NCBI GenBank assembly: GCA_021770245.1
Contig: JAETRI010000009.1
Span: 38,884 to 102,883 of the forward strand
Direction of reading: 5' to 3'
Length of the DNA: 64,000 nt
Source: Lachnospiraceae bacterium
GTDB taxonomy: Bacteria; Bacillota; Clostridia; Lachnospirales; Lachnospiraceae
Made by a program: the position numbers and the translations under genes. The notes beneath the pieces are model-generated. The model did no database searches. It was not told where the DNA came from and saw only the letters and a list, made by a program, of their open reading frames with translations. Every line of letters begins with the position of its first letter. Position 1 is the first letter of the stretch. Positions 43,516-44,496 of the stretch are shown piece by piece.

Positions 43516-44496
43516 CTAACCCCTCAGACCGAAGACCGGACGAACCCCACGAGAGTCCGACGCGTTGCCGCAGGTCGAACGGCCATCGCCGCTCACACGA
43601 GCGAAATACGTCCCAGAAACGACGTCTCTCAACCACTGGTTCTGTCTTGCAGGATTGATGAATCTCGGATGTGCAGCCATGAGCGCAAGCTGAGTTTTGT
43701 CGATGGTATAACGGTTCGGCACGAAAGATCCGTCTCCTGCAGGAGTAAACACCAGGCTTCCATACATCATGATTTCATTCGGCAGCTCAACCTTGGAATC
43801 ATACCAGGCGCCTGCGGACGGATAGCCATTGCTCACAGCATTCGTCAAATACTCGCGATGATTCAGAACTGCAGTCTCGCCAAATGCGGCATACACCAGT
43901 GTCTTGGCATTTTCCAGATTCTCCGTGTACATCTTAGAGCCTACATAGCCGCCAGTCGTGATGTTCGTCTCATTCATCTTCGCTGTGTACAGCTGGGAAT
44001 CGGGCATAACTACCAGATGGTGGGTCGTGCAAGCCGTATCGCCGCTATTCCACCAGTAATCCATATCCACAATTCTCCAGACTCTGCCGCCGATCTCCCA
44101 GTAATCACCCAAGAAGAATCTCTTGAATGTGCCGTTGGCAATGTTGGTCTTCTGTTCGGAAGTCAGAGCCGCTCCCAGATTCTTGCCGCGGAACGTGTTC
44201 TTACGAACCTCCAAAGGGGCGCAGGCATCCAGAATAGCCCACAAAGCGTCATCCACTGTGATTCCCTTATTTCCTGCGGATGTGTTGATCATAATCTTGT
44301 CTGTCTTAGCGACTGCCGTGGACTGAGTCAAATCGGCCACATTCATCACCGTTAAGTAATCCTTGGCGTTTCCTGCCTCGGCCAGAGCTTTCAGCAAGTC
44401 CTTTGCCAAAATTGTCTTTGTGCCGCCAGCGCCGTCTACCAAAAGAACGTTATCCGCCGGCAGAGTTGAGACTAAAGCATAATCCGTAATTTTCAT
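43516..44496 (-). CDS. DGR variable protein (tail tip/adhesin, C-terminal lectin-like/FGE-like domain)
   Basis: 326 aa; C-terminus GTYFARVSGDGRSTCGNASDSRGVRPVFGLRG* is encoded by the VR. Confidence 0.92.
   Translation of the reverse strand: MKITDYALVSTLPADNVLLVDGAGGTKTILAKDLLKALAEAGNAKDYLTVMNVADLTQSTAVAKTDKIMINTSAGNKGITVDDALWAILDACAPLEVRKNTFRGKNLGAALTSEQKTNIANGTFKRFFLGDYWEIGGRVWRIVDMDYWWNSGDTACTTHHLVVMPDSQLYTAKMNETNITTGGYVGSKMYTENLENAKTLVYAAFGETAVLNHREYLTNAVSNGYPSAGAWYDSKVELPNEIMMYGSLVFTPAGDGSFVPNRYTIDKTQLALMAAHPRFINPARQNQWLRDVVSGTYFARVSGDGRSTCGNASDSRGVRPVFGLRG
43536..43624 (-). repeat. DGR variable repeat (VR)
   Basis: 17/89 differences from TR, all at template adenines (coding strand). 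Confidence 0.96.

What the first reader, a model, noticed from the sequence alone, without database searches (positions are those of the whole stretch)
43536..43624. VR codon logic: Asn-rich template turned into a diverse binding surface
Coding-strand translation of TR is GTNFANVNNNGNTNYNNASNSNGVRP; of VR it is GTYFARVSGDGRSTCGNASDSRGVRP. AAC/AAT codons become Y, R, S, G, D, R, T, G, D, R, and ACG/TAC become TCG/TGC. The TR segment has 25 mutable adenines on the coding strand; 17 have changed and 8 have not. Scaffold residues (F, A, V, G, A, S, S, GVRP) have no or protected A positions, so fold is preserved. So many changes suggest repeated retrohoming rather than drift.
Basis: partly seen in the sequence, partly recalled or inferred. 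Interest (0 to 1): 0.85.

Follow-up and report, generated by a model that had tools for sequence, protein, structure and literature searches.

The report
Phage tail-protein diversifier with spacer guide
A prophage of a gut bacterium carries a cassette that rewrites one end of a tail protein by copying an adenine-rich template with errors, and its template RNA also carries a short stretch matching the DNA just beyond the rewritten end, which may be how the new copy finds its place.

Summary
VR 43536-43624 is a copy of TR 42363-42451 in which 17 of 25 adenines and 0 of 64 other bases differ (P = 1.4e-12). With an RT, an Avd homologue and a DUF6273-like tail protein beside it, this is a diversity-generating retroelement (DGR) in a prophage. 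Its family is recently active: homologous loci with target genes identical outside VR differ at 15-18 adenine sites and at 0-3 others. DGRs are known, and so is the codon logic. New here is the target-site signal. The spacer RNA folds a hairpin at the TR end whose loop (UAACCAA) is complementary to a TTGGTTA box just past VR. In 34 loci 94.7% of cells pair, with 23 two-sided changes; cognate beats non-cognate pairing in every permutation. The same kind of spacer-VR complementarity appears across 38 spacer clusters, including BPP-1, where 4 of 5 IMH/IMH* differences improve it. A GC hairpin with a CYYGT loop follows. I propose that this spacer segment guides the cDNA to VR. The covariation is measured; the function is inferred.

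The parts
43516..44496 (-). DGR target gene: 326-aa tail-associated protein with C-terminal DUF6273-like region; VR is its last part
   Evidence: ORF; DUF6273 hits in 16 of 35 family members, best E 7.6e-4, one relative above cut-off; structural neighbours named receptor binding / DUF6273
43536..43624 (-). variable repeat (VR), 17 of 25 template adenines changed
43515..43523 (-). box past VR on the sense strand (family consensus TTGGTTAR; here GGGGTTAGG), complementary to the spacer loop over 7 nt (GGTTAGG); overlaps the stop codon
43492..43508 (-). GC hairpin past VR: GGGGGC-CTTGT-GCCCCC; 5-nt loop of the CYYGT type
   Evidence: 66 of 67 family loci have a 5-7 bp stem here, nearly all with a 5-nt loop, with different stem sequences; DNA fold
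43123..43458 (-). 111-aa protein between target and avd, no family hit
42955..43092 (-). small XkdX-like gene (46 aa); coordinates approximate
   Evidence: Pfam PF09693 E 2.8e-19 on the peptide; coordinates read from the sequence
42457..42954 (-). Avd homologue, 165 aa
   Evidence: phrog_3206 'Avd protein of DGR', E 7.8e-10
42363..42451 (-). template repeat (TR)
42339..42361 (-). spacer hairpin at the TR end: UUCUCUG-CCUAACCAA-CAGAGAA
   Evidence: stem pairs in 96.2% of cells, 24 two-sided changes in 34 loci; RNA fold
42345..42354 (-). proposed guide: loop CCUAACCAAC, complementary to the box past VR
   Evidence: 94.7% of cells paired, 23 two-sided changes, covariation of slid registers below 0.065
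42294..42300 (-). spacer CCGGACG complementary to the TR end CGTCCGG; not kept in all relatives
41025..42263 (-). DGR reverse transcriptase, 412 aa, YMDD and IGDQLSQ motifs
   Evidence: RVT_1 1.5e-17, phrog_1423 5.5e-63, alignment

Best explanation
This is a diversity-generating retroelement of a tailed prophage, of a recently active family. The TR RNA (TR plus downstream spacer) is reverse transcribed by the RT with Avd, adenines are miscopied, and the cDNA replaces the VR at the 3' end of a tail-tip protein gene, so that about 13 residues are randomised on a fixed scaffold. The target site is set by three signals at the end of VR: the TR/VR identical end (GGGGTTCGTCCGG), a box TTGGTTAR, and a GC hairpin with a CYYGT loop. 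The spacer carries the complement of the box in the loop of a hairpin whose stem is formed with the TR end. I infer that this hairpin stem places the primer strand on TR, and that the spacer strand then pairs with the sense strand past VR. The covalent RNA-cDNA chimera (known for BPP-1) is then complementary to VR in one line: guide RNA to the flank, cDNA to VR. TR itself cannot be a target because its flank is the guide. Shown: A-specific change, recent activity in relatives, both hairpins, guide-box covariation. Inferred: that the pairing occurs with DNA and serves homing (probability about 0.5; the stated confidence is for the DGR itself).
For: A-only substitutions. RT, Avd and tail context. 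Active variation in identical relatives. 68 family TR/VR pairs. Spacer hairpin and loop-box duplex with covariation and slide controls. Cognate above non-cognate pairing with one representative per RT cluster (22 clusters: 9.10 vs 7.83 nt, p below 0.001). The predicted register has the largest covariation excess, 0.854, against 0.500 for the next register and 0.241 or less elsewhere. In 7 of 34 sequences a stem pair is broken while that base still pairs with the VR flank in most of them. The box lies in two reading phases (41 and 10 loci) and beside a second VR in trans in L055. Five homologues from phage records, with no TR/VR pair found where scanned (L121), lack box and hairpin. The rule extends to 38 spacer clusters.
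Against: No expression, cDNA or homing data for this element. The C-terminal residues I/V-G-stop are also conserved as protein, which accounts for part of the box (GGTTAR). The window's own box has two changes (GGGGTTAGG) and keeps only 7 nt. L107 and L190 (RT related) lack the loop. In other families only 21 of 38 clusters have 7 nt or more (10.7% expected from non-cognate pairs). Part of the spacer-junction complementarity outside this clade may belong to the spacer-TR priming duplex (TR junction also above chance). Relatedness inflates permutation tests.
Confidence: 0.95

Rival explanations
1. Ordinary DGR; the loop-box complementarity is a by-product. The box is conserved because the protein ends in I/V-G-stop and the loop because RT or Avd binds it.
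For: Most targets end in hydrophobic-Gly-stop, as does a homologue in phage T280 with ...IG-stop. The loop is nearly invariant, as a protein-binding loop would be.
Against: Flanking positions covary in the exact register of the core. TTGGTT lies in two reading phases. Homologues L262-L265 and L121 lack TTGGTT. An independent segment with other sequence does the same in other families.
Confidence: 0.25
2. The spacer loop pairs with the target mRNA 3' end, not with DNA, and regulates expression or keeps RNAs together.
For: TR RNA and target mRNA have the same sense, so the pairing is possible; G-U pairs occur at some sites.
Against: The box sits between VR and a GC hairpin of the kind shown to be needed for homing in BPP-1 (PMC3240598). 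In BPP-1 the complementary VR segment is IMH, a homing signal.
Confidence: 0.12
3. TR/VR are an old duplication that drifted, or VR is hypermutated by another adenine-biased process.
For: None beyond the similarity of the repeats.
Against: 0 of 64 non-A changes; identical genes with different VRs at A sites only.
Confidence: 0.01
4. The box-loop match marks a DNA- or RNA-binding protein that reads the same sequence in both places.
For: A shared 6-7 nt core could be a binding site in inverted orientation.
Against: Two-sided changes outside the core follow pairing rules; a protein site would not need them.
Confidence: 0.1

Closest known systems
BPP-1 DGR (mtd/avd/TR/brt), Bordetella phage
   Same: TR/VR, A-specific change, Avd, RT, order target-avd-TR-RT, GC hairpin past VR, spacer segment complementary to the VR end (Sp 48-56 AGGTGGTCA with IMH TGACCACCT)
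   Different: Hairpin loop here 5 nt CYYGT, not 4 nt GRNA; no (G/C)14 tract; complementary site lies past VR, not inside the repeat; two extra small genes (111 aa and XkdX-like) between target and avd
DGRs of gut phages nd4, nd12 and Faecalibacterium phages Lelie, CP11, Roos, Pioen
   Same: Targets with a DUF6273 domain hypermutated by a DGR (PMC10743442, PMC11792537)
   Different: RT only about 26-30% identical for Lelie/nd4/nd12 type; one target here; spacer complementarity weak or absent in the nd4 and nd12/Lelie-type spacers tested
Acutalibacter phage Fontainebleau DGR
   Same: Similar gene order, homologous target (45%), RT 42%
   Different: No UAACCAA loop; hairpin loop CTTGC with 8-bp stem

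Membership tests
Diversity-generating retroelement | TR/VR pair with substitutions confined to template adenines | tested here: met
   17/25 A, 0/64 non-A
Diversity-generating retroelement | DGR-type RT (GxxxSQ instead of QGxxxSP, YMDD; motif definition from own knowledge) | tested here: met
   IGDQLSQ and YMDD in alignment; phrog_1423
Diversity-generating retroelement | Accessory Avd-type protein | tested here: met
   phrog_3206 E 7.8e-10
Diversity-generating retroelement | VR varies in nature at A sites while the rest of the gene is constant | tested here: met
   In relatives; no second isolate of this exact prophage was compared
Diversity-generating retroelement | RT-dependent, adenine-mutagenised retrohoming | not testable with these tools
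   needs an experiment
BPP-1 type target site | Hairpin past VR with 7-10 bp GC stem and GRNA tetraloop | tested here: not met
   stem 6 bp in the window (mostly 5-6 bp in the family) and a 5-nt loop, mostly CYYGT, in almost all relatives (definition from PMC3240598)
BPP-1 type target site | IMH/IMH* difference at the 3' end with spacer complementary to IMH | tested here: inconclusive
   comparable complementarity lies past VR here
C-type lectin variable protein | C-lectin fold with variable residues on the binding face | tested here: inconclusive
   VR at low confidence, no PDB fold match; DUF6273 link only

The most novel reading that the evidence does not exclude
DGR template RNAs carry a guide. 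A short spacer segment is kept complementary to the sense strand at or just past the 3' end of VR, better than to TR, and registers the RNA-linked cDNA on VR. This would explain target choice, one-way transfer from TR to VR, and why IMH differs from IMH* in BPP-1. In this clade the guide is the loop of the hairpin formed at the TR end and pairs with a TTGGTTAR box.
Probability: 0.5. Interest if true: 0.85.

Novelty: new variant of a known kind. Interest (0 to 1): 0.62.

Why it matters
How the mutagenised cDNA finds and enters the target gene is described as incompletely understood in a 2026 study (PMC12875486). A spacer segment that coevolves with the VR flank gives a concrete answer that can be tested with compensatory mutations, and a rule for pointing DGRs at new genes in laboratory systems. 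The DGR itself, and the Asn-codon logic that was flagged, are ordinary for this class.

Tried and rejected
Second TR/VR or second RT of this kind in the same genome: none; the extra 27-bp hit is in a flagellar gene. Spacer CCGGACG pairing with the TR end as the universal priming duplex: absent in L030, L052, L057, L063, L065, so not essential. The hairpin past VR as an ordinary terminator: no T-run, scan found none. C-lectin fold by structure search: two models, no PDB match at E below 0.001. The same UAACCAA loop in Fontainebleau-type DGRs: absent. Sequence search for a solved relative: none. Papers that may discuss spacer-VR pairing in BPP-1 (two identifiers tried from memory) are not held, so a prior description cannot be excluded.

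Full report
1. The observation. TR 42363-42451 and VR 43536-43624 (minus strand) are 89-nt direct repeats. On the coding strand 17 of 25 template adenines differ in VR and no other base does; the chance that 17 random differences all fall on A is 1.4e-12.

2. The element. The gene order on the minus strand is a Sipho_Gp37-like minor tail protein (46319-48127), a protein of a head/structural PHROG (44868-46298), a 110-aa ORF, the 326-aa target, a 111-aa ORF, an XkdX-like ORF, an Avd homologue, TR, RT, then a small ORF and a Dp-1-type holin. Upstream lie Dit, tape measure, major tail, protease, portal and terminase genes, so this is the tail-tip region of a siphovirus-like prophage. The prophage runs to the contig end (window = contig 38884-102883 of 102883), so its other end is not seen. 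No other RT of this kind, target or VR is in the genome.

3. Activity. 68 distinct TR/VR pairs from viral contigs and bacterial genomes (mostly Lachnospiraceae and other Clostridia) show A changed at 63.3% and non-A at 0.68%. Loci whose target genes are identical upstream of VR differ at 15/25, 17/25 and 18/21 shared A sites and at 0-3 others. The window against L079 and L080 (94% identical gene, same TR): 16/25 and 17/25 A sites, 0/64 others.

4. What the counts do not show. The per-locus changed fraction is 0.634 +/- 0.110, close to binomial (0.098), and the window is 0.68. As each round copies from TR, the count measures the per-A rate and selection, not the number of rounds. T296 is changed at its A in 8 of 18 loci, so it is not protected.

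5. The protein. Family members match DUF6273 (16 of 35, best E 7.6e-4), one relative above the curated cut-off. DUF6273 targets of phages nd4 and nd12 were modelled as C-lectin-like with VR as a surface beta-hairpin (PMC10743442). My two AlphaFold models (mean pLDDT 79 and 84) give short strands 299-301 and 307-309 in VR but at pLDDT near 50, and no PDB match; viral neighbours include proteins named receptor-binding and DUF6273. The exposed-face claim is therefore plausible and not shown.

6. Signals past VR. In 66 of 67 distinct loci a GC stem of 5-7 bp follows VR by about 20-30 nt, nearly always with a 5-nt loop, most often CTTGT, CTCGT or CCTGT, and with different stem sequences (GGGGC/GCCCC, CCGCCC/GGGCGG, GACCC/GGGTC, GGGGT/ACCCC). 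Published phage DGR hairpins past VR have 7-10 bp stems and GRNA tetraloops (PMC3240598). Between VR and the hairpin lies TTGGTTAR.

7. The spacer. Just after TR the RNA can fold UUCUCUG-CCUAACCAA-CAGAGAA. The stem covaries (96.2% of cells paired, 24 two-sided changes, score 0.342, slid versions 0.082 or less). The loop is complementary to the VR box. Over 58 distinct loci 97% have at least 7 complementary nt, against 5.9% for shuffled flanks; cognate mean 8.95, non-cognate 7.93, 0 of 5000 permutations. With one locus per RT cluster the result holds: 29 clusters at 90%, 22 at 85% (p below 0.001), 14 at 82% (median p 0.001, max 0.026). The 10-bp loop-box duplex has 94.7% of cells paired and 23 two-sided changes, score 0.214 against 0.064 or less for slid registers. 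Six core pairs never vary and say nothing; the signal comes from the flanking pairs, in the register set by the core. In 7 of 34 sequences a stem pair is broken; reading the alignment, these are mostly the types in which the same base pairs with the VR flank instead. Extremes are 13 nt in L057/L058 and 12 nt in L183, whose RT is 54% identical to the window's.

8. Is the box only protein? The target C-terminus is usually I/V-G-stop, so part of the box is coding. But TTGGTT starts 5 nt before the stop in 41 loci and 9 nt before it, in another phase, in 10. A second VR served by the same TR in L055 keeps TTGGTT and a CTTGT hairpin with another stem. Five homologous genes in phage records lack both; I did not search those whole phages for a DGR. 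In random 35-mers of these loci TTGGTT occurs in 1.1%.

9. Generality. Over 38 spacer clusters (RTs of very different families, BPP-1 included) the best complementarity between spacer and the VR junction (-8..+14) is 6.47 nt for cognate and 5.09 for permuted partners (0 of 10000). For VR sequence strictly past the TR/VR homology it is 5.47 against 4.81 (0 of 10000). A control stretch +22..+35 shows nothing. The excess sits at spacer +32 to +60. It holds without the UAACCAA clade and with random representatives. Striking cases: L249 GATACCGAAAG, L134 TAAATGGCGA, L216 TGATTGCAA. In BPP-1 spacer 48-56 (AGGTGGTCA) matches VR TGACCACCT over 9 nt but TR over 5. From the five IMH/IMH* differences can be read: three fall in this duplex and would break or weaken it in TR, and a fourth allows a G-U pair next to it. 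That the last A is the priming adenine A56 is from my own knowledge; PMC12875486 says an internal spacer adenine primes cDNA within IMH*. That the five differences keep TR from being a recipient is cited in PMC4891356.

10. Model and limits. I infer that the spacer strand with its attached cDNA pairs in one line with the sense strand of VR and its flank. This fits the proposal that cDNA pairs with the single-stranded target during replication (PMC12875486). Nothing here shows binding or function. The spacer also pairs with TR for priming, which explains part of the junction signal outside this clade (TR junction 5.53 vs 4.67). 17 of 38 clusters have fewer than 7 nt. The literature library lacks the key BPP-1 structure papers.

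11. Verdict. The flagged finding is a correct description of a known kind of system. The target-site signals of this clade differ from the described ones, and the spacer-VR duplex is the part worth an experiment.

Noticed in passing
window 1471-3194 +: Group II intron: two Rfam domain hits followed by a 468-aa RT/maturase ORF with GIIM domain.
   Followed up: partly
VR codons 297-316 across 63 loci: In AAY codons the first A is changed more often than the second (for example 51/63 vs 29/63 at 304, 51/56 vs 33/54 at 316), through context or selection.
   Followed up: partly
VR codon 309 of the target (43516-44496 minus): Template Tyr 309 ends as Cys in 19 and Ser in 17 of 63 loci; Cys at a Tyr-Asn motif was noted in tentaclins as a possible disulfide (PMC10743442).
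   Followed up: no
L055, TR 4813, VR2 9729: One TR serves two VRs, the second about 5 kb downstream of TR, with 16 of 19 differences at A and its own box and hairpin.
   Followed up: yes
L030-L032, L053, L054, L074; L072/L073; L117: RT reading frames interrupted or truncated in some relatives although VR differs from TR only or mostly at A; these DGRs may be recently dead.
   Followed up: no
window 43515-43523: The window's own box is changed at two core positions (TTGG to GGGG) and keeps 7 nt of complementarity; retrohoming here may be weakened.
   Followed up: no
window 35116-38982 +: CotH-kinase, VTC-domain and DUF4956 genes lie next to the prophage end.
   Followed up: no
L118-L261, other DGR families: 5-nt loop hairpins (CTTGT, CTCGT, CTTGC) past VR also occur in distant DGRs such as Roseburia phage Shimadzu, while L180 and L195 have GRNA loops.
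   Followed up: partly
window 42250-42338 -: The rest of the spacer (AAGGAGA..TGTCC, GCAATTTACTACGGTAAGTATTGC, ACGGTGAATAA) is strongly conserved in the clade with a compensating stem; likely the RT-Avd binding part.
   Followed up: partly
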